Of a stretch of DNA of 40,421 nt, positions 2,245-34,861 are shown one piece after another. The notes under the pieces were generated by a model. The model worked only from the letters and a program-made list of their open reading frames with translations. It was not told the DNA's origin and searched no databases. Position 1 is the first letter of the stretch, and each line of letters opens with the position of its first letter. The DNA is taken from contig CAIXSY010000192.1 of assembly GCA_903922175.1 (NCBI GenBank), forward strand, positions 1 to 40,421, given 5' to 3'. The stretch comes from an uncultured delta proteobacterium (GTDB lineage Bacteria; Bdellovibrionota_C; UBA2361; CAIXSY01). The position numbers were made by a program, and so were the translations under genes.

Positions 2245-2302
2245 TTATCGACGTCAGCCGTCAGCGTTCTCCGATTTATGGTTATGAGAGGCGAGCAGTT
2301 AG
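2245..2302. repeat. GACGTC-hairpin element (family A), partial copy A1
   Basis: cgacgtcagccgtcagcgtt...gagaggcgagcagttag: half of the GACGTC core plus one terminus (revcomp CTAACTGCTCGCCTCTC). Confidence 0.55.
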
Positions 2303-9112: not shown

Positions 9113-9176
9113 ACCGATGACGCCGACGTCTAAGGTTGACGTCAGCGTTAGCCGATTAGGGGCGAGCAGTTACCAT
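9113..9176. repeat. GACGTC-hairpin element (family A), short copy A2
   Basis: gatgacgccgacgtctaaggttgacgtcagcgttagccgattaggggcgagcagttac; terminus revcomp GTAACTGCTCGCCCC. Confidence 0.6.
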
Positions 9177-10923: not shown

Positions 10924-10953
10924 GTCTGGTTCCTTTTAAATAAGAAAAAAACA

Positions 10954-11135
10954 TAACTGCTCGCCCCTCATAGCAGAAAATCGGATAACGTTGACGTCTA
11001 ACGTCCAACGTCGGACGTAAAACGTCGACGTCTGACGTCCGGCGTTATACGTTTGTCGTCAGCGTCATCGTTCCTCAAAAATCTTCGTCTTACGCTGAGT
11101 ATTCCAATATTCATACAGAGGGCGTGAGTAGTTAC
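10954..11135. repeat. GACGTC-hairpin element (family A), full-length copy A3
   Basis: TIR-like ends TAACTGCTCGCCCCTC ... GAGGGCGTGAGTAGTTAC; core acgttg acgtcta acgtcca acgtcgg acgtaaa acgtcg acgtctg acgtcc. Confidence 0.75.
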
Positions 11136-13600: not shown

Positions 13601-14554
13601 ATGTCCGAAGAACTTCTCCTAAGCATCATCATCCCAGCCTATAACGAAGAGTCTGTAATCGGCGAAACATTACGTAAGATCGGCGGTCTGGGGCTTCCTG
13701 ATTATGAAGTAATAGTCGTCGATGACGGTAGCCAGGACGGTACTGCCAAGGTAGCGGAGCAGTCCGGTGTGCGGGTGATCTCGCACCCCTACAATATTGG
13801 TAACGGTGCCGCCGTAAAGACCGGCATTCGCTCAGCTCGCGGCCGGGTCCTCGTATTTATGGACGGTGACGGCCAGCACGATCCGGCGGATATTCCGCGC
13901 TTAGTGAGTAAGATTGCGAACTACCACATGGTCGTTGGTGCACGTTCGCGCGGCTCAGAGACCCACTGGCACCGTGATATGGCGAATGCCCTCTACAACA
14001 AGTTTGCCTCGTTCGTTGCCGATTTCGAGATTAAAGATCTCACCAGTGGATTTCGCGTCATGCGCCGCGACGACGCCGTGCGTTTCTGTGACATGTTCCC
14101 CAATCGCTTCTCCTATCCGACGACCTCAACCCTGGCCTTTATCCGCTCAGGCCGGGCAGTGACCTACCTGCCGATTCAGACTAAGTATCGCGTCGGCAAA
14201 AGTAAGATTAAGCTCTTGCACGATGGGGTCGAATTTCTCCTGATTATCATCAAGATCGCCATGACATTCTCGCCGCTGCGTGTCTTTTTACCGATAAGTT
14301 CGTTCCTCTTCTTCCTCGGCCTGGCGCGTTATGTGCAGACCTTTATCGAATTTCATCGCTTCACCAATATGTCGCACCTGCTGATCAATTCAGCCGTAAT
14401 CGTCTTTATGCTCGGTCTTATCGCCGAGCAGATCGCCGCGCTGCGGATGGAGAAGGGCGACAAGCTCTTTGCTATTGAAGATCAGAAACGCTACCAGGAG
14501 TTTGAGAAGTGGTATAAGGATTCATCCGCAGGGCAAACTCCGATGAGATACTGA
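13601..14554 (+). CDS. Glycosyltransferase family 2, polyprenyl-phosphate sugar transferase-like
   Basis: 317 aa; LSIIIPAYNEESVIGETL, EVIVVDDGSQDGT, VLVFMDGDGQHDPADI, two C-terminal TM segments. Confidence 0.9.
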   Translation: MSEELLLSIIIPAYNEESVIGETLRKIGGLGLPDYEVIVVDDGSQDGTAKVAEQSGVRVISHPYNIGNGAAVKTGIRSARGRVLVFMDGDGQHDPADIPRLVSKIANYHMVVGARSRGSETHWHRDMANALYNKFASFVADFEIKDLTSGFRVMRRDDAVRFCDMFPNRFSYPTTSTLAFIRSGRAVTYLPIQTKYRVGKSKIKLLHDGVEFLLIIIKIAMTFSPLRVFLPISSFLFFLGLARYVQTFIEFHRFTNMSHLLINSAVIVFMLGLIAEQIAALRMEKGDKLFAIEDQKRYQEFEKWYKDSSAGQTPMRY

Positions 14555-14621
14555 AACCGTCAACCGTTTATAGCCGATCTGCCTCTTTCCTGAGGTGGAT
14601 GACCCAGGTTACTATCAAGGC

Positions 14622-14894
14622 ATGGCACTACTCTTCGAATGGGATGCAGCAAAGGCACGGAAAAATATTCAAAAGCATCGTGTGTCATTTGAGGAGGCAA
14701 CATCAATTTTCGGAGATCCTGCAGCAGTTACCATAGAATCTCCATTTCTGGGGGGTGAATATAGGTTCGTTACTATTGGGTATTCTTCTACTGGCAGGCT
14801 TTTAGTAGTGGCGCATACCGATAGAAATGATAGAATTAGAATGATTAGCGTGCGAAAAGCCACAAAGAAAGAGAGGCAACAGTATGAGCAATGA
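14622..14894 (+). CDS. brnT: BrnT-family (DUF497) toxin
   Basis: MALLFEWDAAKARKNIQKHRVSFEEATSIFGDPAAV...EYRFVTIGYSSTGRLLVVAHTDRNDRIRMISVRKATKKERQQYEQ: typical BrnT pattern. ATG 14622 preferred over 14595. Confidence 0.85.
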   Translation: MALLFEWDAAKARKNIQKHRVSFEEATSIFGDPAAVTIESPFLGGEYRFVTIGYSSTGRLLVVAHTDRNDRIRMISVRKATKKERQQYEQ

Positions 14895-15105
14895 TATCGA
14901 ACCAGAATTCGACTTTTCTCAAGGTGCACGTGGAAAATATCATGCAAAGTACCTAAAGGGGACCAATGTCGTGGTTCTTGAGCCTGAGATAGCAAAAATA
15001 TTTCCCGATTCTATCGCAGTCAACAATGCGCTGCGAACATTAATCCAAGCAGCTGGCCATAACCAAACGTTGCAACGGACGCGCAAAGCGCGCCGCAGAG
15101 CCTAA
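14884..15105 (+). CDS. Cognate antitoxin-like protein
   Basis: Overlaps the BrnT stop by 11 nt; MSNDIEPEFDFSQGARGKYHAKYLKGTNVVVLEPEIAKIFPDSIAVNNALRTLIQ matches a common small antitoxin pattern. C-terminal tail NQTLQRTRKARRRA is encoded by a palindromic attC-like sequence. Confidence 0.75.
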   Translation: MSNDIEPEFDFSQGARGKYHAKYLKGTNVVVLEPEIAKIFPDSIAVNNALRTLIQAAGHNQTLQRTRKARRRA

Positions 15106-15114
15106 CGTTCTCGG
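15059..15114. other. attC-like palindromic site
   Basis: ataaccaaacgttgcaacggacgcgcAAAgcgcgccgcagagcctaacgttctcggc; imperfect CGG-A-CGCGC/GCGCG-CCG stem, flanking AACGTT boxes. The canonical R' box GTTRRRY is not present. Confidence 0.3.
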
Positions 15115-15115
15115 C

Positions 15116-15433
15116 TTAGTTCTTATCTCGACCAAATCCAATGGAGCGTTTGTTGGAAGGAATCGGTAGAGCCACTATTTTGCGAATGGCTTCAAAGACG
15201 ATCTTGAATTGTCTATCATAGCGTCTTTCAAGATCGTCTAGCCTCAGCATTAACTCCGAGTTATTTGCGATGAGATTTCTCAGCTGTACAAAGGTTCTCA
15301 TGATCTGAATGTTGACTTCGATTGCTCGCTCAGAGTTAAGGACGGTTGAAAGCATCGCTACACCTTGCTCAGTAAACGCAAATGGAAGTGTCCTTCGCCC
15401 TCCCCAACTTGAGGTCACAATTTGTGACCTCAA
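15116..15433 (-). pseudogene. ORF6N-domain protein, C-terminal fragment
   Basis: LRSQIVTSSWGGRRTLPFAFTEQGVAMLSTVLNSERAIEVNIQIMRTFVQLRNLI: ORF6N C-terminal half; reading frame is open upstream to TAG near 15538 but lacks the N-terminal half and an ATG. Confidence 0.7.
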
Positions 15434-15509
15434 AGCGCCAAACTCTTGAGTTGAAAGAAAGTTACTTAAGCTATAACAAGTTTTGAGGGTAGGGTTTGAT
15501 TCTCCGATT

Positions 15510-15547
15510 AAGCTACTCCCTTGCTGAATAAGCTACTAATAAGCTAC
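15510..15547 (+). promoter_or_regulatory. Three direct AAGCTAC iterons upstream of fic
   Basis: AAGCTAC at 15510, 15530 and 15541, the last two as aatAAGCTAC; the last ends 12 nt before the Fic ATG (15560). Confidence 0.4.
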
Positions 15548-15559
15548 CATAGCTTTACT

Positions 15560-16612
15560 ATGAGATCTTTTTCCACTGAATTCCTCCAAAATATCGAGGT
15601 TCCCGTCGGCACCTCATGGCTGCTCGGTAGCTGTATGGAGGCGCGAGGGAAGCAGGATCTCTGGCTAAAAACAAGGCCGGACGTCCTAAAGGCATTGCGC
15701 GAGATCGCCGTAATCCAATCAGCGGAGTCTTCTAACCGAATTGAGGGAGTAACCGTAGAACGGGCGCGACTTATTCCACTACTCGAAAGGAAAATACGAC
15801 CCCGTGATCGTTCGGAAGAAGAGGTATTCGGGTATCGCAAGGCTTTAGATTGGATCCACTCAAAGCACGCATCAATCGAGATTACCCCCGCCACTATTCG
15901 TCATCTGCATTTCCTTGCGCAATCAGGGTTCTCCGGCGACGCAGGCGCCTGGAAAAAGAAGAGTAACAAAATCATTGAGATTCAAGTGGACGGGAGAAGG
16001 GCGGTTAGATTTATCCCCGTCAGCCCTAAAGAGACCCCCGCGGCTATGAAGGAGACATGCCTAGGTTACAAGCACGCTGGACAGAGCTCCCTACTACCCG
16101 ACGCCCTCGCCATCGCCTCGTTTACTCTTGATTTTCTGTGCGTTCACCCATTCAGAGATGGGAATGGACGAGTGTCTCGATTGCTCTCACTTTTACTGCT
16201 CTATCAATGCGGCTATCAGGTGGGAAGGTTTATTAGCCTAGAGAGAATCATTGAGAGCACGAAAGAGGAGTACTACGAGGCATTGCGCCAGAGCTCGGTC
16301 GGCTGGCACGAGGGTAAACACGATCCGATCCCTTACTGGAACTACTTCCTACGTTGCCTAAAGGAGGCTTATAGCGAACTTTCTAGTCGAGTTTCGATGC
16401 AGGAGGCCCACTCAGGTGGCAGTAGCGAACTCATTCGCAAAAATATTCTAGCTCAGCATTCCGCATTTACCCTCGCTGAGATAACTGAGCAGTTTAAATC
16501 TTCGAGCAATCAACTAGTAAGAAAAGTGCTCTATCAACTTAAAAGCGAGCGCAAGGTCAAGCTCGTCGGCCGCGGGCGTGGAGCTCGATGGAGGGTGCTT
16601 AAAGATAAATAG
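15560..16612 (+). CDS. Fic-domain protein (class II-like) with C-terminal winged-helix-like region
   Basis: HPFRDGNGRVSRLLS Fic motif; N-terminal inhibitory-type motif SSNRIEGV; C-terminal KNILAQHSAFTLAEITEQFKSSSNQLVRKVLYQLKSERKVKLVGRGRGARWRV. Confidence 0.9.
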   Translation: MRSFSTEFLQNIEVPVGTSWLLGSCMEARGKQDLWLKTRPDVLKALREIAVIQSAESSNRIEGVTVERARLIPLLERKIRPRDRSEEEVFGYRKALDWIHSKHASIEITPATIRHLHFLAQSGFSGDAGAWKKKSNKIIEIQVDGRRAVRFIPVSPKETPAAMKETCLGYKHAGQSSLLPDALAIASFTLDFLCVHPFRDGNGRVSRLLSLLLLYQCGYQVGRFISLERIIESTKEEYYEALRQSSVGWHEGKHDPIPYWNYFLRCLKEAYSELSSRVSMQEAHSGGSSELIRKNILAQHSAFTLAEITEQFKSSSNQLVRKVLYQLKSERKVKLVGRGRGARWRVLKDK

Positions 16613-18776: not shown

Positions 18777-18969
18777 GTAACTGCGCACTCCTCGTAACAG
18801 AAAACGAATGACGCTGACGGCTAACGTCCAACGCCGGGCTCCGGCGAGCACCGTCGAGTCGACGTCTGACGTCGACGTTTGACGTCCGGACGTCAGCGTC
18901 AGCGATCCTCAAAAATTGCCATTTTGTGCTGAGTATCTCCATATTCACACCGAGGAGGTGAGTAGTTCC
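18777..18969. repeat. GACGTC-hairpin element (family A), full-length copy A4
   Basis: GTAACTGCGCACTCCTCG ... CGAGGAGGTGAGTAGTTCC ends; large imperfect hairpin core; right arm cctcaaaaat...gctgagtat..c.atattcacac is shared with A3. Confidence 0.75.
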
Positions 18970-23036: not shown

Positions 23037-24199
23037 ATGAAGAAGTTATTCATCGCTCTTATTGGTATCATGCAGTTGCCCGTTCTGGCGCACGCCGATG
23101 TGCTCTGTGAGCAAAAAGGGCAGGTACAGCTTGTGCGCAAGGCTACTCAATGCCCACGTAAGTGGAGCAAGGTAGACCTCAATAGTCTGGTAGTGATCAA
23201 GGATGTGACGGGGCAGAAAGGCGACACGGGAGCCCAAGGGATACAGGGCATACAGGGGCTCAAGGTGTTGCTGGCCCTCAAGGGTTAAAAGGAGACAAGG
23301 GAGAGCAAGGCATTCAAGGACTCCCCGGCGCCCAGGGAGTTAAGGGTGAACAGGGCCTGCAGGGGCTAAAAGGTGATAGTGGCGCGCAGGGCATTCAGGG
23401 AGTCGCAGGTGCAAGGGGCGATAAAGGTGAGCCGGGGGTGCAGGGTCTTAAAGGAGACGCCGGTTCGCAGGGCATTCAGGGGATCGCTGGTGCCAAGGGC
23501 GACAAAGGTGAGCCGGGAGTGCAGGGTCTTAAAGGAGACGCCGGCGCACAGGGCATTCAAGGGATCGCTGGTGCTAAGGGCGACAAGGGTGAGCTGGGAC
23601 TGCAGGGTCTTAAAGGAGACACTGGAGCGCAGGGCATTCAAGGGATAGCTGGTGCTAAGGGCGATCAGGGTCTGCAAGGTCTAAAAGGCGACAGAGGTCT
23701 CCCAGGGCTTCAAGGTCTGCAGGGGGTGAAGGGTAACAAGGGGGATACCGGCGAGCCTGGTATTGCAGGGTTTTTTAACACTGCTGACTTCATCAATGGT
23801 CACGCCACAGTTAACGAATATAGGATCAATTATGTGAGCGGCGGATACTCTGAACAGACCCCCGTTGAGATCCCCTGTACGCCGAACTTCATTACCAAGA
23901 TTACCTGCAAGCGTGCGGGTGGATCGCTGCCCATGGCTAGAATTTGTAAGTACGGTGGCCAGAACAATCAGTGCGCTGAATCTCTTGTCAGCGTGACCTT
24001 CGGGCCGCAGATAGCATACGGATTCGACTCGTACTACACCCTCGATATTAGCCTGCACACGCCGATCTATGTGGCGCCTCCTGCTAACTGCGCAGCAAGC
24101 GGTGGTGTTTATAGCAGCACGTCAAACTTCCTCTCCATTGCAAATGATGCAGCGGCCACTCCGGAGTGTGAGCTGACGATCGTCTCAATCCAGCCGTAG
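23037..24199 (+). CDS. Collagen-like (Gly-X-Y) secreted protein, interrupted by a single-base frameshift near 23257-23263
   Basis: Signal peptide MKKLFIALIGIMQLPVLAHA; GQKGDTGAQGIQGIQGL breaks frame (TAA at 23286) but GVAGPQGLKGDKGEQGIQGLPGAQGVKG... continues in another frame through 24199. Confidence 0.8.
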
Positions 24200-24517: not shown

Positions 24518-24716
24518 CATTGACGCTTTGTGCTGGGGGTGCTACGAAGCACCGTAGGAGTTCAAGGGAAGAACGGTGAAATTCCGTCACGGGCCCGCCG
24601 CTGTAACCGGATAAAGCACTCCAAGCCACTGCGCGAAGAGCGCGGGAAGGCGTGCGTTATTGTCGTCATCCCCTAGCGGGGAAGAGGCAGTAATCTGGAA
24701 GTCAGAAGACCTACTC
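24518..24716 (+). promoter_or_regulatory. Cobalamin riboswitch
   Basis: AAGGGAAgaacGGTGAAATTCCGTCACGGGCCCGCCGCTGTAAccgg...aaGCCACTGcgcgaagagcgcGGGAAGGCG...GGAAGTCAGAAGACCTAC, upstream of btuB. Confidence 0.95.
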
Positions 24717-24887
24717 TGTATTTGAGGAAGAGTTCACTTCTTCGAATGCCCTATCTTGTATTTTATCGCAGGGATTGCTCTCGGGGAGAGGAGCTAATCT
24801 TGGGAAAGTTGATGCTGCTACGCTGTTGTGTTGCTGTTCGCTGACGTAAGCGTGGTTGATGTCCCCTGCCGTTCAAGTGGGCTTTAA

Positions 24888-26816
24888 ATGTATCATTTTA
24901 ACGTGCTGGTGCGCGCATCTGTCCTGTTGGTTAGTTTCGCCTATGGGGCTGGTGGTGCTTGGGCTGAAGATCCGACGGGGGCTTCTCCGGTGGAGATTGT
25001 GGTCACTCCGAACAGGACCGAGACCCCGCTGCGCGAGGTGGCGAGCTCGGTGAGCGTCATTACGGCGGCTGATATTAAGGAAAAAGGATCGAACTCGGTT
25101 GTTGACGTGCTGCACGATATTCCGGGGGTCGATGTGGTGCAAAGCGGCGGCCCGGGTGGAAACGCTGCAGTTTTTATTCGCGGTGCCAATGCCGATCATA
25201 CCCTCGTGCTGATCGATGGGATTGAGGCTAACAATCCGATCTCACCCAACCGAGCCTTTAATTTTGCTGACCTGAGCGTTGATGATATCGAGCGCATCGA
25301 AGTGCTGCGTGGTCCACAGAGCACGCTTTATGGCTCAGATGCTCTCGGCGGGGTGATCCAGATTATCACGAAGAAGGGAACCAAGAAGACGATCGTCGGC
25401 GCTTCGGCAGAAGCGGGTTCGTATGATTCCTACACCGAAACAGCGCATGCTTCGGGCGGCAACGATCTTCGTAACTTCTCTTTTTCAGCATCGCAGCGCA
25501 ACGTGCATAGCTTCTCGGCTGCAGACAAGCGTGATGGCAATAGCGAAGCCGATGCCTATGCCAATAGCTCCTTTGCGGGACGCGTTGGTGTGACGCCTGC
25601 AAAAGACCTCGAAGGGGCCCTTTTCCTGCGCTACAACGATGCTCACACGAACCTTGACAATAGCGCTGGCGCTGGCGGTGACGATCCGAACAGGCTGCTC
25701 AAGAATCAAGAGATCTTTACGCGCGGTGAAGTGCGTAACTCTTTCTTCGATGAAACACTGAAGCAGATCTGGTTTGGCGATTACACCGAGCATCGGCTCG
25801 ACGATGACAATGATCCCGATCCGGCACACCCGCTTGATAGTCAGCGTAGCCACTATAACGGAGGCTTGTTTAAGTACGGACTGGAAAATGCTCTCCGTCT
25901 AACCTCGTACCTATCCTTACTTGGTGGGGTGGAGAATGCGGTTGAGCGCGGCAGCTCTCTTTTGGATAGCGATAGTGCCTACGGCCCCTACACCGACCAG
26001 TTCTATGGCAAAAGTCAGCGTACGACGGGCTACTTTGGCCAGGCGAGCCTCTCGCTATGCGAGGCTTTTCACAGCACGTTCGGTGTGCGCTTGGATGATA
26101 ATTCGGCGTTTGGCACGCATGCCACTTGGCGTGTAGCACCCACGTACTATGTAAGTGATAGTGGCACTAAGTTTTCGGCGAGTGTCGGAACGGGATTTAA
26201 GGCACCGTCGTTGTATCAGCTCTATTCACCGTACGGCGACCCAACGCTGCTACCGGAAAAGAGCTTGGGGATTGATGCTGGTGTCAGTCAGTCGTTTCTG
26301 GGTGAGAGTGTTACGCTCGGTGTCACCTACTTCTGGAATAGGTTTGATAACCTGGTGACCTTTAACCCAGCTACATTCGTTCTTGAAAATAGTGGCGGGG
26401 CACATACACAAGGCATCGAAGCTTCGTCTGAGTATGAAATAAGTAAGGCCTGGCAGGCGCGCGGTACCTTTACGTACACCGATACCAGTGATGATGAAAC
26501 GGGACAATCGCTGCTTCGGCGTGCACGTCTGATGTCTTCGGCACGTCTAAGCTACAAAGAGGAGGAGCGTTGGGGGGCACATGCCGAGGTTCTTGCCGTG
26601 GGGAGCCGTCCCGATAACGACTACAACAGCTATCCGCCGACTCGTACCACGTTGGCAGGCTATGCTCTGCTCAATGTTGGGGCTTTTTATGGGTTGTCCA
26701 GGAATGTTGAGCTCTATGTTCGGGCGGAAAATCTGCTTGATAAAAAATATCAGGAGGTTCTTGGTTACGGCACGGCGGGAGCTACGGGGTATATTGGGGT
26801 GAAGGTGAGGATGTAG
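24888..26816 (+). CDS. btuB: TonB-dependent vitamin B12 receptor
   Basis: 642 aa; TonB box-like PVEIVVTPNRTETPLREV; plug SVSVITAADIKEKGSNSVVDVLHDIPGVDVVQSGGPGGNAAVFIRGANADHTLVLIDGIEANNP; C-terminal barrel; riboswitch upstream. Confidence 0.9.
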   Translation: MYHFNVLVRASVLLVSFAYGAGGAWAEDPTGASPVEIVVTPNRTETPLREVASSVSVITAADIKEKGSNSVVDVLHDIPGVDVVQSGGPGGNAAVFIRGANADHTLVLIDGIEANNPISPNRAFNFADLSVDDIERIEVLRGPQSTLYGSDALGGVIQIITKKGTKKTIVGASAEAGSYDSYTETAHASGGNDLRNFSFSASQRNVHSFSAADKRDGNSEADAYANSSFAGRVGVTPAKDLEGALFLRYNDAHTNLDNSAGAGGDDPNRLLKNQEIFTRGEVRNSFFDETLKQIWFGDYTEHRLDDDNDPDPAHPLDSQRSHYNGGLFKYGLENALRLTSYLSLLGGVENAVERGSSLLDSDSAYGPYTDQFYGKSQRTTGYFGQASLSLCEAFHSTFGVRLDDNSAFGTHATWRVAPTYYVSDSGTKFSASVGTGFKAPSLYQLYSPYGDPTLLPEKSLGIDAGVSQSFLGESVTLGVTYFWNRFDNLVTFNPATFVLENSGGAHTQGIEASSEYEISKAWQARGTFTYTDTSDDETGQSLLRRARLMSSARLSYKEEERWGAHAEVLAVGSRPDNDYNSYPPTRTTLAGYALLNVGAFYGLSRNVELYVRAENLLDKKYQEVLGYGTAGATGYIGVKVRM

Positions 26817-26837
26817 GGAGGTGCTCGCACCTCCCTA
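26814..26837 (+). terminator. Hairpin incorporating the btuB stop codon
   Basis: TAGGGAGGTG-ctcg-CACCTCCCTA; 10-bp perfect stem, first 3 nt are the stop codon; no T-run. Confidence 0.5.
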
Positions 26838-26935
26838 ATCGTATAGTTATATGCCATCACCATTTCTACTAAGAATAAATATTGAAGATGGGTCAGGATT
26901 GGTGAACATAGTGAGAAGTAGGAATGAATGTTGCT

Positions 26936-27112
26936 TGCTCGTAGCGACGGAGGTCCCTCCTCTCCCCTTTTGGTGGAATCATCGGTAGCTTTGGCAAAGC
27001 ACGGGAAAAGGGGAGAGTTCGGGATGACATTAAAAAAAATGTCATCCCGAGCGCAAGTCACTAGTTGGAGTGTGCTTGACTCAACTGCTAGCGAGGACCT
27101 CCGTCGTTCGCC
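26936..27112. repeat. Nested palindromic repeat (family F)
   Basis: Outer CGACGGAGGTCC / GGACCTCCGTCG; inner ccccttttggtgg...gggaaaagggg similar to family B; TCGGGATGACATT-aaaaaa-AATGTCATCCCGA hairpin (27019-27050). Confidence 0.7.
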
Positions 27113-27190
27113 GAGCCCTATACCTCGTCGGACCGAGGTGAGCTTTTGCTAACGGCAGAATTAGGTAAAGGTTTCTTTTGAGAAGGTAAT

Positions 27191-28075
27191 ATGACGAAAG
27201 CATACCTCCCCTATTTAACCCTCTGCAGCGCATTGCTCCTCCTTTTACCTACGTTCGCCGCCAACGCCGACGTCGTCCCTGCCCCTACCTGCGCCCGTAT
27301 CGTGTCTTTGTCGCCGAGCGTAACCGAGACGCTGTACGTGCTTGGGCTTGGGGATTCGATCGTTGGCGTGACGCGCTATTGCCTGTACCCAGTGCAGGCT
27401 CAGGCAAAACCTAAGGTGGGAGGATTTCTTGATCCGAGTAATGAAACTATCGCCTCACTCACCCCATCGCTGGTGATTACCGTTCGCGAGCAGGAGGAGG
27501 AACGGCGCTTCCTGGAGACGCTTGGTATAAAAACATTGTCGGTTGAGCACAAAAGTATCAAGGGCATCCTCAACTCGATTGACGAGATCGCCTCTATCTG
27601 TGGCCGTGCAGAGGAGGGGCGTAGGCTGCGCGCAGATTTAGAGCAACGGGTAGAAGCCGTTCGTCAGCGGAGTGCAGGAAGGCCGCGTGTGCGGGTATTG
27701 GTCGCCGTGGGTGGTAATGAACAGGACGGTGAGCTCTCGCATCTGTTTGTCTCTGGCCGCGATGGCTACTACGACCAGATGCTCTCGATTGTCGGTGCGG
27801 ATAATGTTTATAGCGGCACGACCGCCAATCTGCCTTCGCTTTCTAAGGAGGGGCTGATTGTGCTTAATCCCGAGGTGGTGATTCAGATCGGCTCAGAGAG
27901 CGATGGGTTGCGGGTTGCCCCCGAGGCGATACTTCGAGCATGGTCTAAGCTGTCCATGATCAATGCCGTGAAAAACAAGCGAATTCATATATTTACACAG
28001 GACTTCGCCTCGATCCCAGGACCTCGCTTTGTGCTTCTCCTCGAAGAATTTGCTAGAGTTATACATCCAACCTAG
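27191..28075 (+). CDS. btuF: ABC transporter periplasmic cobalamin-binding protein
   Basis: 294 aa; CARIVSLSPSVTETLYVLGLGDSIVGVTRYC...VGGFLDPSNETIASLTPSLVITV; position between btuB and btuDC. Confidence 0.88.
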   Translation: MTKAYLPYLTLCSALLLLLPTFAANADVVPAPTCARIVSLSPSVTETLYVLGLGDSIVGVTRYCLYPVQAQAKPKVGGFLDPSNETIASLTPSLVITVREQEEERRFLETLGIKTLSVEHKSIKGILNSIDEIASICGRAEEGRRLRADLEQRVEAVRQRSAGRPRVRVLVAVGGNEQDGELSHLFVSGRDGYYDQMLSIVGADNVYSGTTANLPSLSKEGLIVLNPEVVIQIGSESDGLRVAPEAILRAWSKLSMINAVKNKRIHIFTQDFASIPGPRFVLLLEEFARVIHPT

Positions 28076-28088
28076 GCGGCGCCAACGT

Positions 28089-28874
28089 ATGAACGAACAA
28101 GCAATCCTTAATGTCGTAAACCTTGGCGTTCGCCGTGGTAGCCGAACCATCTTGCAGCAGCTGACGTGGAGCGTTGCCAGTGGGGAGTTGCTGGCGCTCG
28201 TCGGTCCTAATGGCGCTGGCAAGACGACGCTTCTTAAATGTTTGGCGGGACTAATTGCACACACAGGAGAGGTGGCGTTGCACGGTGTCTCGCTTTCGAG
28301 CCTGGCTCGCAGGAAGTTGGCCCAGATAGTTGCCTATGTGCCGCAGAGTGTCGACCTCTCCTTTCCCTTCAGCGTGCGCGAGTTCGTTAGCTTTGGGCGC
28401 TATCCCCATCTTGAGCGCTTTTGCGGGTTACAGCCCGAGGATGAGCGCTTTGTAGAAGCTCTTCTCGAAAAGGTTGGTATTCGCTCACTTGCAGATCAAC
28501 GTGTCAGCTCGCTCAGCGGTGGTGAGCGGCAGAAGGTGCTGCTTGCCTCGGCGCTGGCGCAACAGCCGAAGCTGCTCCTTCTGGATGAGCCGACGGCCTA
28601 TCTTGATCCGAAGCGGCAGCGAGATCTTATGGCGCTGCTCCATACGCTCTGTTCCGACGGGCTCTCGGTGGTGGCGGTTACGCACGACATTAACGGTATG
28701 GGGCGTGAGGCCGATCGAATCTTGGCACTTAAAGCCGGTCAGCAGCATTTCTTGGGAACTCCTGAGGAGTTTATCCGTCCCGAAATATTGGCGGGACTGT
28801 ATGACGAGCGCTTTACGCTCTTTACTCATCCCGAGTCCAAGCGCCAGGTGGCTATTACCCATTCTACTCACTAA
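28089..28874 (+). CDS. btuD: ABC transporter ATP-binding protein (cobalamin uptake)
   Basis: Walker A GPNGAGKTTLLK; signature VSSLSGGERQKVLLASAL; Walker B LLLLDEPT. ATG 28089. Confidence 0.9.
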   Translation: MNEQAILNVVNLGVRRGSRTILQQLTWSVASGELLALVGPNGAGKTTLLKCLAGLIAHTGEVALHGVSLSSLARRKLAQIVAYVPQSVDLSFPFSVREFVSFGRYPHLERFCGLQPEDERFVEALLEKVGIRSLADQRVSSLSGGERQKVLLASALAQQPKLLLLDEPTAYLDPKRQRDLMALLHTLCSDGLSVVAVTHDINGMGREADRILALKAGQQHFLGTPEEFIRPEILAGLYDERFTLFTHPESKRQVAITHSTH

Positions 28875-29866
28875 TGATCTCCACGATGATCTCGACAAGG
28901 CGACGCCTCATTATTTTCGGACTGGCAATGATCGCCATCCTCTTCGCTTGCCCGTTCCTTCCGCTCTCGCTCTGGGATGGGCCGGCACAGGCGGTGGCGC
29001 CGATGATCTTCTGGGAGATTCGCGTTCCACGAGTCTTGGGTGCTTTTTTGGCGGGTGCCGGGTTGGCGACCTGCGGGTTAGTCTTTCAGAGCATGTTTCG
29101 TAATGTGCTAGCGACGCCGTTTACGCTGGGGGTCTCGAGCGGCGCCGCTTTTGGGGCCAGTCTCTTCTATGCTTTGGGGTTTAATTGGTCGCTTGTTGGG
29201 CTTTCAGGCTCAGCATTATTTGCGATTCTTGGAGCACTAGGAACAACATTTCTGGTCTTTCTCCTCGGTCGCTTGCGACGCAGCGCAAACTCGGCGGAGG
29301 TCACCTTGCTTCTTTCGGGCGTGGTGATCAGTTTCTTCTTTTCAAGCCTGATCCTTCTTTTGCAGTATCTGAGTGACTTCGCTGGACTGTTTAAGATTAC
29401 ACGCTGGCTGATGGGAAGCCTCGAGCTGATGGAGTACCGCGTGGTTGTTGCCCTTCTTATCGTTGTCGTCTTTGGGGCAGTAATAAGTTTCCTGAATGCG
29501 CATGAACTTAACCTGCTTAGTGCTGGTGAGGAGTTCGCTTTAAGTAAGGGGGTGGCGGTAGTGCGCGTGCGCTGGACACTGGTGGCGGTGACCTCGCTTG
29601 TTGTCGGCGCTGTGGTTTCGTTTTGCGGTCCGATCGGCTTTGTCGGGATTATGGTGCCACACATCTGTCGAATCCTCTTTGGTCTAAATCACCGCGTCTT
29701 AAGCCCCTGTGTTTTTCTCTTCGGCGGCGCATTTTTAGTTCTCTGTGACACGCTGGCGCGGACAGCCATCGCCCCGTATGAGATACCGGTGGGGGTGATC
29801 ACCTCGCTTCTCGGCGGGCCGTTTTTCTTGTGGCTGTTGCTGCGCGGGGAGGAGGAGCAGAGTTAG
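28874..29866 (+). CDS. btuC: FecCD-family ABC permease (cobalamin uptake)
   Basis: 330 aa; RVPRVLGAFLAGAGLATCGLVFQSMFRNVLATPFTLGVSSGAAFGA; TAATG overlap with btuD. Confidence 0.9.
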   Translation: MISTMISTRRRLIIFGLAMIAILFACPFLPLSLWDGPAQAVAPMIFWEIRVPRVLGAFLAGAGLATCGLVFQSMFRNVLATPFTLGVSSGAAFGASLFYALGFNWSLVGLSGSALFAILGALGTTFLVFLLGRLRRSANSAEVTLLLSGVVISFFFSSLILLLQYLSDFAGLFKITRWLMGSLELMEYRVVVALLIVVVFGAVISFLNAHELNLLSAGEEFALSKGVAVVRVRWTLVAVTSLVVGAVVSFCGPIGFVGIMVPHICRILFGLNHRVLSPCVFLFGGAFLVLCDTLARTAIAPYEIPVGVITSLLGGPFFLWLLLRGEEEQS

Positions 29867-31540: not shown

Positions 31541-31706
31541 GTAAAAGTATCGCTAGGTTATAGTGAACATTCTTACGCCCTAGTAGTTATTTATCTTTGC
31601 CTACCTCTTTTTAACGCGGTATAAACCTTGCGGCTGCTACCTGTTCATTGAGTGACGCCTCATGGGCGTGAATTTCGCTTTTGTAGTTGAGTTTGGGGAG
31701 CCTTAT

Positions 31707-32447
31707 ATGAACCAGCATCATTTATCACGTCATATCCCGGCACATCGCGCTGGTGAACGGTGGGGCGAAATGACACTACAGCATCAGCCCACGTTAGGCT
31801 GTGAATTCGATCTTCTTCCGGATTTCGAAATCGCCAGAGTAATTCGGGAGCACTCCCCTTTTCATAATCACCCGTTGACCCCGCGAGGGATTCCAGAATT
31901 TATAACGCAGGTCACGGGGGAGTTGGTAGAGCGAACGCTGGATAAGGAGACACTTCGGCAGCACTACATTGTAGCTGCATCCCTCGTCTTGTTCGCGCGC
32001 CATCTGCTGAACTTGGGAATAGAAGAGGTAAGCGTGAGTGCCTTTGAGCGACTTCTGCGACATCCTCCGCATAATATAGAGAAACCGCTTGGTCTTATCT
32101 TTAAGGCCTCGGATGGTGGTGATCTGGTAGAGTTAAATGGGGCACACCTCTCTAGTGGGGGGCTGCTTGAGGTGAGCGAAGAGTCGGAAGCTGGAGGTCC
32201 GAGATTTAAGACCAGTGATCGTGTCCAGGCTACCATTGAAGACGCTCTGCGCGAAGTGCGCGCAGAGATCTCTCATGGGTATCGGTATGCACTGCACTTT
32301 GCTTTTATCGGATATCACCACGTTTGCCTGCCTATATTTAATATTCGTTCATCCTCAGAAACGGCGGACTTAATACTGTCTGAAGAATTGCGCGTTCATC
32401 GTGGCCGGTTTTTTCTGCAGATGCCTGAGTTCTTGAGTGAATCTTGA
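31707..32447 (+). CDS. Hypothetical protein
   Basis: ORF with GGGGAG Shine-Dalgarno before ATG 31707 (ORF track gives 31662); no recognised family. Confidence 0.6.
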   Translation: MNQHHLSRHIPAHRAGERWGEMTLQHQPTLGCEFDLLPDFEIARVIREHSPFHNHPLTPRGIPEFITQVTGELVERTLDKETLRQHYIVAASLVLFARHLLNLGIEEVSVSAFERLLRHPPHNIEKPLGLIFKASDGGDLVELNGAHLSSGGLLEVSEESEAGGPRFKTSDRVQATIEDALREVRAEISHGYRYALHFAFIGYHHVCLPIFNIRSSSETADLILSEELRVHRGRFFLQMPEFLSES

Positions 32448-32453
32448 GCTGCC

Positions 32454-32622
32454 GTAACTAGTCAGCACTTTTAGTGAAGGCGCAGGGAAAATTCGATGAC
32501 GTTGACGTCTAATGTCTTACGCCGGACGTCCTACGTCGACGCAAGACGTCCGGCGTTAGTCGTTTGACGTCGGCATCATCGATCTTTTAGTTAAATAGTT
32601 CCCTAGAGTACGGACTAGTTAC
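32454..32622. repeat. GACGTC-hairpin element (family A), full-length copy A5
   Basis: Perfect 10-bp TIR GTAACTAGTC (32454-32463) / GACTAGTTAC (32613-32622); core arms 32494-32530 and 32545-32581 pair at about 30/37 positions. Confidence 0.8.
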
Positions 32623-32793
32623 GAGCTACCCTTCCTTGGGATCCTGCGGTAAGTATCGCCTATTGCGGCCCTAGTGGCCTACATTGCCTTCTCTCGGAGG
32701 CCGTTGTATTTTCACGGGGAGCCTTGCCGCTATAAGTTCGTGCAAGGAGGGAGCGATGTCACGCTCTTCCATGAGACAATTTAAGTACCCCCC

Positions 32794-34250: not shown

Positions 34251-34368
34251 GGTAACTATGCGCCCTCATCGACTAACGCTGACGTCAAACGTCTAGCGCC
34301 GGACGTAAAGCGTCGAGGTCAGACGTCCGGCGTTAGACGTCAGCGTTATACGATCCTCGCACTACTCC
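34251..34368. repeat. GACGTC-hairpin element (family A), copy A6
   Basis: TAACGCTGACGTC (34274-34286) / GACGTCAGCGTTA (34336-34348) perfect arms plus GCGCCGGACGT/ACGTCCGGCGT; terminus GGTAACTATGCGCCCTC. Confidence 0.75.
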
Positions 34369-34426
34369 TATCTGTATGGGGAGACTAATTACGTACTTTT
34401 TGACTAACAACATTAAGAAGGCACCT

Positions 34427-34861
34427 ATGAAACGAGGAACAGATTATATTGGGGTGACAGTCTCTTTTCTCTGCCATGACGGCAGGGGAAAAATTCTATT
34501 GCACAAACGCACTCAAAATAGTCGTGACGAGCAAGGGAAGTGGGACAACGGTGGCGGGGCGTTGGAGTTCGGGGAGGGGTTTGAAGAGGCTGTCGCGCGT
34601 GAGATTAAAGAGGAATATTGCGCCGATGTTGTAGAGAGTAAATTTCTCTGCGCGTACAACAACCTGCGGCAGCAAGATGGCGCGCCAACACACTGGGTGA
34701 ATATTGTGTATTTTGTGCAGATTGATCCGGCGCAGGTCCGAATCGGTGAGCCGACAAAGATGGAGGAGCTTGGTTGGTTTTCTCCCAACGCCCTGCCTGA
34801 ACCGCAACATCCGACTCTTGCAAGGTGGATTGTTGAGGCGAGAAAGGCGAAGATGATTTAA
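34427..34861 (+). CDS. Nudix hydrolase
   Basis: Nudix box GGGALEFGEGFEEAVAREIKEEYCAD. ATG 34427. Confidence 0.92.
   Translation: MKRGTDYIGVTVSFLCHDGRGKILLHKRTQNSRDEQGKWDNGGGALEFGEGFEEAVAREIKEEYCADVVESKFLCAYNNLRQQDGAPTHWVNIVYFVQIDPAQVRIGEPTKMEELGWFSPNALPEPQHPTLARWIVEARKAKMI

What the first reader, a model, noticed from the sequence alone, without database searches (positions are those of the whole stretch)
32454..32622. Dispersed ACGT-heptamer/GACGTC hairpin element with terminal inverted repeats (family A)
At least six intergenic loci (2245-2302, 9113-9176, 10954-11135, 18777-18969, 32454-32622, 34251-34368) share a core of ACGTnnn units at about 7-nt spacing that folds into a large imperfect hairpin. 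The ends resemble GTAACT(R)(S)TC in inverted orientation. A5 has perfect 10-bp ends (GTAACTAGTC/GACTAGTTAC) and about 30/37 paired core positions. A3 and A4 also share a right arm (cctcaaaaat...gctgagtat..c.atattca). Copies diverge in unit order but keep pairing, which suggests selection or mobilisation of a structured, non-autonomous element built from a short-period array. No transposase is visible in the window.
Basis: partly seen in the sequence, partly recalled or inferred. Interest (0 to 1): 0.8.

Follow-up and report, generated by a model that had tools for sequence, protein, structure and literature searches.

The report
High-copy IS66-type miniature transposon family
The repeated hairpin is a short "passenger" transposon (a MITE) that has spread to at least 86 places in this bacterium's genome, probably by borrowing the machinery of an IS66-family jumping gene; it is a new family of a well-known kind, with an unusually well-kept palindromic centre.

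Summary
The element at 32454-32622 is a complete 169-bp non-autonomous transposable element: 10-bp perfect ends, a near-perfect 8-bp target duplication outside them (GAGCTGCC/GAGCTACC), and a ~93-nt quasi-palindromic core of ACGTnnn units. A covariance model of the core finds at least 86 distinct places in the genome; the terminal motif GTAACTRSTC occurs 506 times against 46 for a reversed control. Target duplications are exactly 8 bp (19 of 100 end pairs perfect, 0-2 at any other length). Ends and duplication match the ISBst12 group of the IS66 family: ISDge4 of Deinococcus (published TIR GTAACTGCTCAGCA, 8-bp repeat) and an IS66 element on plasmid pHTA426 that I measured (GTAACTATTCAGC, 8/8). 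So: a new IS66-type MITE family. No autonomous element with these ends is in the assembly. Other genomes (45 of the phylum; GTDB r220 pattern scan) lack the core, but one relative (G010) carries a separate MITE expansion with the same ends. The core is better conserved among lineages than the arms, hinting at a role in transposition. Coordinates of A1, A2, A3 and A6 need correction.

The parts
32454..32622 (.). Copy A5: complete MITE, 169 bp, subfamily with GTAACTAGTCAGCAC end
   Evidence: perfect 10-bp TIRs; full-length relatives L002 (94%), L003 (93%), L004 (87%), L005 (82%)
32446..32453 (+). Left target-site duplication of A5, GAGCTGCC; begins inside the TGA stop codon of ORF 31662-32447
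   Evidence: 7/8 match with the right copy
32623..32630 (+). Right target-site duplication of A5, GAGCTACC
32454..32463 (+). Left terminal inverted repeat of A5, GTAACTAGTC
32613..32622 (-). Right terminal inverted repeat of A5, GTAACTAGTC read on the - strand
32491..32583 (-). Quasi-palindromic core of ACGTnnn units in A5
   Evidence: 89.5 bits, E 5e-18; the palindrome also matches on + (32492-32584)
10953..11135 (.). Copy A3, 183 bp, first base mutated (ATAACT); target duplication AAAAAAAC/AAAGAAAT (6/8)
   Evidence: core 10980-11072, 90.7 bits
18777..18969 (.). Copy A4, 193 bp; target duplication GTTTCACA/GTTTCAAA (7/8); same right arm as A3
   Evidence: core 18803-18906, 40 bits
34252..34392 (.). 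Copy A6, 141 bp; right end degenerate (GACTAATTAC); no target duplication recognisable; right arm like L164
9113..9173 (.). Copy A2: internally deleted remnant with an intact right end GGGGCGAGCAGTTAC
   Evidence: (31.2 bits)
2245..2302 (.). Copy A1: decayed right end only (GAGGCGAGCAGTTAG)
   Evidence: (not detected by the model)

Best explanation
It is a non-autonomous miniature transposon (MITE), about 170 bp when complete, that was moved in trans by an IS66-family transposase recognising ends of the ISBst12 type (GTAACT-R-S-TC). Shown: discrete ends, exact 8-bp target duplications, at least 86 dispersed copies, several subfamilies with one core but different arms, and the same end type plus 8-bp duplication on real ISBst12-group IS66 elements. 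Inferred: the transposase binds the GTAACTRSTC ends and inserts the element into staggered 8-bp targets; insertions that survive lie between genes. Also inferred: the palindromic ACGTnnn core arose when an internal deletion joined the inverted subterminal short-period arrays of a parent IS (the intact IS66 in this genome has such inverted arrays, with a different unit); the core is kept in propagating lineages because it helps transposition or is tolerated best, while individual copies decay neutrally.
For: 8-bp duplications: 19 of 100 end pairs perfect at 8 bp, 26 at 7/8 or better, 0-2 at any other length, against about 0.003 perfect expected; 25 perfect cases listed after more loci were fetched. 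TIR motif 506 hits against 46 for the reversed control. 86 core places. ISDge4, IS66 family, ISBst12 group: TIRs GTGACTACTCAGCA/GTAACTGCTCAGCA and 8-bp repeat, seen to transpose (PMC12898284). pHTA426 IS66 element 14107-15741: ends GTATCTATTCAGCCCA/GTAACTATTCAGCCCG, 8/8 duplication GACGAGTT. IS66 elements of the same phylum have GTAA ends (several 17-18/20) and one has an 8/8 duplication. Sister MITEs with the same ends carry the subterminal motif AAGTGTGGGTA of the intact IS66 at C429. G010, a relative, has its own MITEs with the same ends and 8-bp duplications.
Against: No autonomous element with GTAACT ends was found: the assembly has one intact IS66 (ends GGTTCCTCACC), one truncated IS66 and one weak remnant, although an ISBst12-type transposase would score about 218 bits on the model used. 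IS66 searches in G010 also gave only a fragment. So the link to IS66 rests on ends and duplication length, not on a matched transposase.
Confidence: 0.88

Rival explanations
1. A MITE, but mobilised by a transposase of another family that also makes 8-bp duplications (for example IS256, ISL3 or IS1595 type).
For: No IS66 with identical ends in the assembly; other families also give 8-bp repeats (established knowledge).
Against: The 10-bp end motif is identical or nearly so to ISBst12-group IS66 ends and IS66 elements of the phylum start with GTAA; sister MITEs share a subterminal motif with the resident IS66. Other transposase families were not searched for in the genome.
Confidence: 0.08
2. 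A structured RNA or regulatory hairpin kept by selection on its base pairing, copied around the genome.
For: Very stable fold (z -7.5); core less diverse than arms.
Against: No covariation beyond shuffles; no Rfam match at these loci; exact 8-bp duplications and TIRs explain the dispersal; recent (singleton) changes are spread evenly over core, spacers and arms.
Confidence: 0.03
3. A REP/REPIN-type palindromic element mobilised by a RAYT (TnpA_REP, Y1/HUH) protein.
For: Intergenic, palindromic, high copy.
Against: REP elements have no long TIRs at the ends of a 170-bp unit and make no target duplications (established knowledge); here both are present.
Confidence: 0.01

Closest known systems
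IS66 family, ISBst12 group (ISDge4 of Deinococcus geothermalis, PMC12898284; ISGka4-family IS66-like element on pHTA426)
   Same: End sequence GTAACT..TCAGC and 8-bp direct repeats
   Different: Those elements encode a single-ORF transposase (449 and 485 aa); the element here has no ORF and a palindromic ACGTnnn core not reported for them
Bacterial MITEs in general, e.g. MITECca01 of Cardinium (IS982-derived, 169 copies, PMC9769881) and MITEPsy1/2 of Pseudomonas syringae (PMC3189936)
   Same: Short, TIR-bounded, no transposase gene; MITECca01 is likewise high-copy and reported mostly intergenic
   Different: Different parental IS families; the ACGT-array core and multi-arm subfamilies are particular to this genome
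MITE family of relative G010 (GTAACTGGTCACC...TGCTGACTAGTTAC, 182-303 bp)
   Same: Same terminal motif, 8-bp duplications, A5-like end GTAACTAGTCAGCA
   Different: Interior unrelated; no ACGT core

Membership tests
MITE (miniature inverted-repeat transposable element) | Short (<~500 bp), terminal inverted repeats, no coding capacity for a transposase | tested here: met
   169-197 bp complete copies, TIRs of 10 bp or more; scanned window ORFs include no transposase
MITE (miniature inverted-repeat transposable element) | Target-site duplications of fixed length | tested here: met
   8 bp, 19 perfect of 100 pairs, none at other lengths above chance
MITE (miniature inverted-repeat transposable element) | High copy number, dispersed | tested here: met
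   86 distinct core places on many contigs
IS66-family derivative (ISBst12 end type) | Ends beginning 5'-GTAA and resembling a named IS66 element | tested here: met
   8-10 of 10 terminal bases equal to ISDge4 right end; pHTA426 IS66 ends; phylum IS66 ends
IS66-family derivative (ISBst12 end type) | 8-bp target duplication | tested here: met
IS66-family derivative (ISBst12 end type) | A cognate autonomous IS66 with the same ends in the genome (supporting, not strictly defining for a MITE) | tested here: not met
   Only an IS66 with GGTTCCTCACC ends, a truncated one and a weak remnant; assembly is fragmented (432 contigs)
IS66-family derivative (ISBst12 end type) | Mobilisation by an IS66 transposase in trans | not testable with these tools
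   needs a transposition assay
Structured RNA family | Compensatory base-pair changes beyond chance | tested here: not met
   no Rfam match at these loci
REP/REPIN | No target duplication, RAYT-mobilised paired palindromes | tested here: not met
   8-bp duplications and ~170-bp TIR-bounded unit

The most novel reading that the evidence does not exclude
The ACGTnnn palindromic core is a functional module for the element itself (for example a binding array for a host or transposase-associated protein, or a replication/strand-transfer hairpin) that has been passed between different MITE arms, and is the reason this family is so numerous.
Probability: 0.2. Interest if true: 0.55.

Novelty: new member of a known kind. 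Interest (0 to 1): 0.35.

Why it matters
It adds a high-copy MITE family with IS66/ISBst12-type ends; a text search of the held open-access papers found none described, though that library is partial. It shows that one terminal signal has driven separate MITE expansions with unrelated interiors in two families of one bacterial order. The pattern of a conserved core with variable arms gives a direct, testable handle on what an IS66-type transposase needs inside the ends. For genome reading it is a caution: a striking array-plus-hairpin repeat was an ordinary MITE once its target duplications were measured.

Tried and rejected
RNA covariation test: negative. Rfam: only a cobalamin riboswitch elsewhere. 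Long TIR pairs in relative G010 (about 2.6 kb, C4 and C22) as candidate autonomous elements: they enclose ordinary genes, so they are pairs of separate MITEs. Truncated IS66 at C316 as the source: no paired GTAACT ends. Intact IS66 at C429 as direct source: 8-bp duplication GGATTTTG but ends GGTTCCTCACC. DruA (PF14236) as a second mobile lineage: only the copy inside that IS66. Exact core pattern in GTDB r220 genomes and IMG/VR: none, while the same pattern hits 82 of the 266 loci then held, some of them overlapping, as a positive control. Naming the host through its BtuC protein: best relatives only 54% identical, an unclassified bacterium, Omnitrophota and Elusimicrobia MAGs, so the host is left unnamed. 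Promoter/terminator scan near A5/A6: no excess over shuffles.

Full report
What was checked. The sequence at 32454-32622 has perfect 10-bp inverted ends, a 100-bp quasi-palindromic centre and imperfect 17-bp terminal arms. It folds as single-stranded DNA at -41.5 kcal/mol against -21.3 +/- 2.7 for shuffles.

Dispersal. A DNA search of the window's own genome (4.79 Mb, 432 contigs) with this copy gave 76 matches, many of them the two strands of one palindrome. A covariance model of the 93-nt core, built from 37 copies, gave 146 matches, which collapse to 86 distinct places; this is a lower bound because only 150 of 1754 candidates were scored. The end motif GTAACTRSTC occurs 506 times, against 46 for the same motif read backwards, so the genome also holds other MITE families with the same ends. 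Examples with 8-bp duplications and no ACGT core are L069:2411-2586 and L009:1705-1885.

Transposition. For 100 inverted end pairs in fetched loci, flanking 8-mers were perfect duplicates in 19 and at least 7/8 in 26; any other length from 4 to 12 gave 0-2 perfect. About 0.003 perfect pairs are expected by chance. A5 has GAGCTGCC/GAGCTACC, A4 GTTTCACA/GTTTCAAA, A3 AAAAAAAC/AAAGAAAT. This establishes insertion by a transposase making 8-bp staggered cuts. The six window copies all lie between the main ORFs (my own reading of the ORF list).

Which transposase. IS66 elements in genomes of the same phylum have ends starting GTAA (GTAACCGTCCACT, GTAAGCGTCCTA, GTAAGCGATTCCTA and others), one with an 8/8 duplication. 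A paper on Deinococcus geothermalis reports ISDge4, IS66 family, ISBst12 group, with ends GTGACTACTCAGCA and GTAACTGCTCAGCA and an 8-bp direct repeat, and observed it to transpose (PMC12898284). As an independent test I took the IS66-like element of plasmid pHTA426 (a plasmid listed as carrying an ISBst12-subgroup IS66 in PMC8024623): its ends are GTATCTATTCAGCCCA and GTAACTATTCAGCCCG, with duplication GACGAGTT on both sides. The element studied here has GTAACTAGTCAGCAC or GTAACTRCTCGCCCC. End type and duplication length therefore match the ISBst12 group.

The missing parent. In this genome an IS66 transposase model finds one intact element at C429 (tnpB, a DruA-domain gene and a 556-aa transposase, plus an unassigned 138-aa ORF; ends GGTTCCTCACC, duplication GGATTTTG), one truncated element at C316 and a weak remnant. 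None has GTAACT ends. An ISBst12-type transposase scores 218 bits on the Pfam model, so an intact one in the assembly should have been seen. It may be lost, or missing from this fragmented assembly. One sister MITE group (GTAACTGCTCATTAAGTGTGGGTA...) shares the subterminal motif AAGTGTGGGTA with the intact IS66 at nearly the same distance from the end, a further link to IS66.

The core. Subfamilies with different arms (A5-like, standard, A3/A4-like) share one core. Among 48 near-full standard copies mean column diversity is 0.07 in ACGT motifs, 0.12 in spacers, 0.23 in arms and 0.09 in the ends, yet changes seen in one copy only are spread much more evenly (0.52, 0.46, 0.38, 0.90 per column). 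I read this as neutral decay of individual copies with constraint on lineages that propagate; recombination between subfamilies could give a similar picture. Complementarity at non-ACGT positions exceeds a spacer shuffle (p 0.003), so the palindrome is more than a by-product of ACGT being self-complementary. Compensatory change is not above shuffles, so selection on RNA pairing is not supported. The intact IS66 carries inverted subterminal hexamer arrays (43 bp, 81% complementary); joining such arrays by internal deletion would yield a palindromic array core like this one. That origin is an inference by analogy.

Distribution. The core is absent from 45 other genomes of the phylum, from GTDB r220 genomes by exact pattern and from IMG/VR. 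The end motif is amplified in one other genome of the order, G010 (120 hits against 16 control), where it bounds 182-303-bp MITEs with 8-bp duplications and a different interior. Separate expansions under one end signal is the simplest reading.

Verdict. A new MITE family with IS66/ISBst12-type ends: new member of a known kind.

Noticed in passing
window 24518-24732: Cobalamin riboswitch (Rfam RF00174, 78.5 bits) ahead of a BtuB-like TonB receptor and BtuF/BtuC/ABC-ATPase genes (24888-29866): an ordinary B12 uptake operon.
   Followed up: partly
L061:1627-5549 (G000:C429): IS66 element with tnpB, a DruA-domain (PF14236) gene and transposase, plus an unassigned 138-aa ORF; 8-bp duplication GGATTTTG; unusual ends GGTTCCTCACC instead of GTAA. 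A MITE-like end with the same sequence lies at L030:1057.
   Followed up: partly
L062, L063, L065, L066, L070 (own genome): Other MITE groups with GTAACT ends (CATTAAGTGTGGG, CAATAACCCCGGG next to the end) whose interiors contain short repeats such as CGTGAT- or GTTCCT-like hexamers; several nested or adjacent insertions.
   Followed up: partly
G010 loci L207-L223: A relative in another family of the order has its own expansion of 182-303-bp MITEs with GTAACTGGTC/GTAACTAGTC ends and 8-bp duplications; interior with CCCCGATTTGCTCCGCAAATCGG palindromes of variable number.
   Followed up: partly
window 23438-24199: ORF with collagen-like triple-helix repeats (PF01391).
   Followed up: no
window 34376-34427: The first ATG of the NUDIX ORF (34376) lies inside the right arm of MITE copy A6; the likely true start is 34427.
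   Followed up: partly
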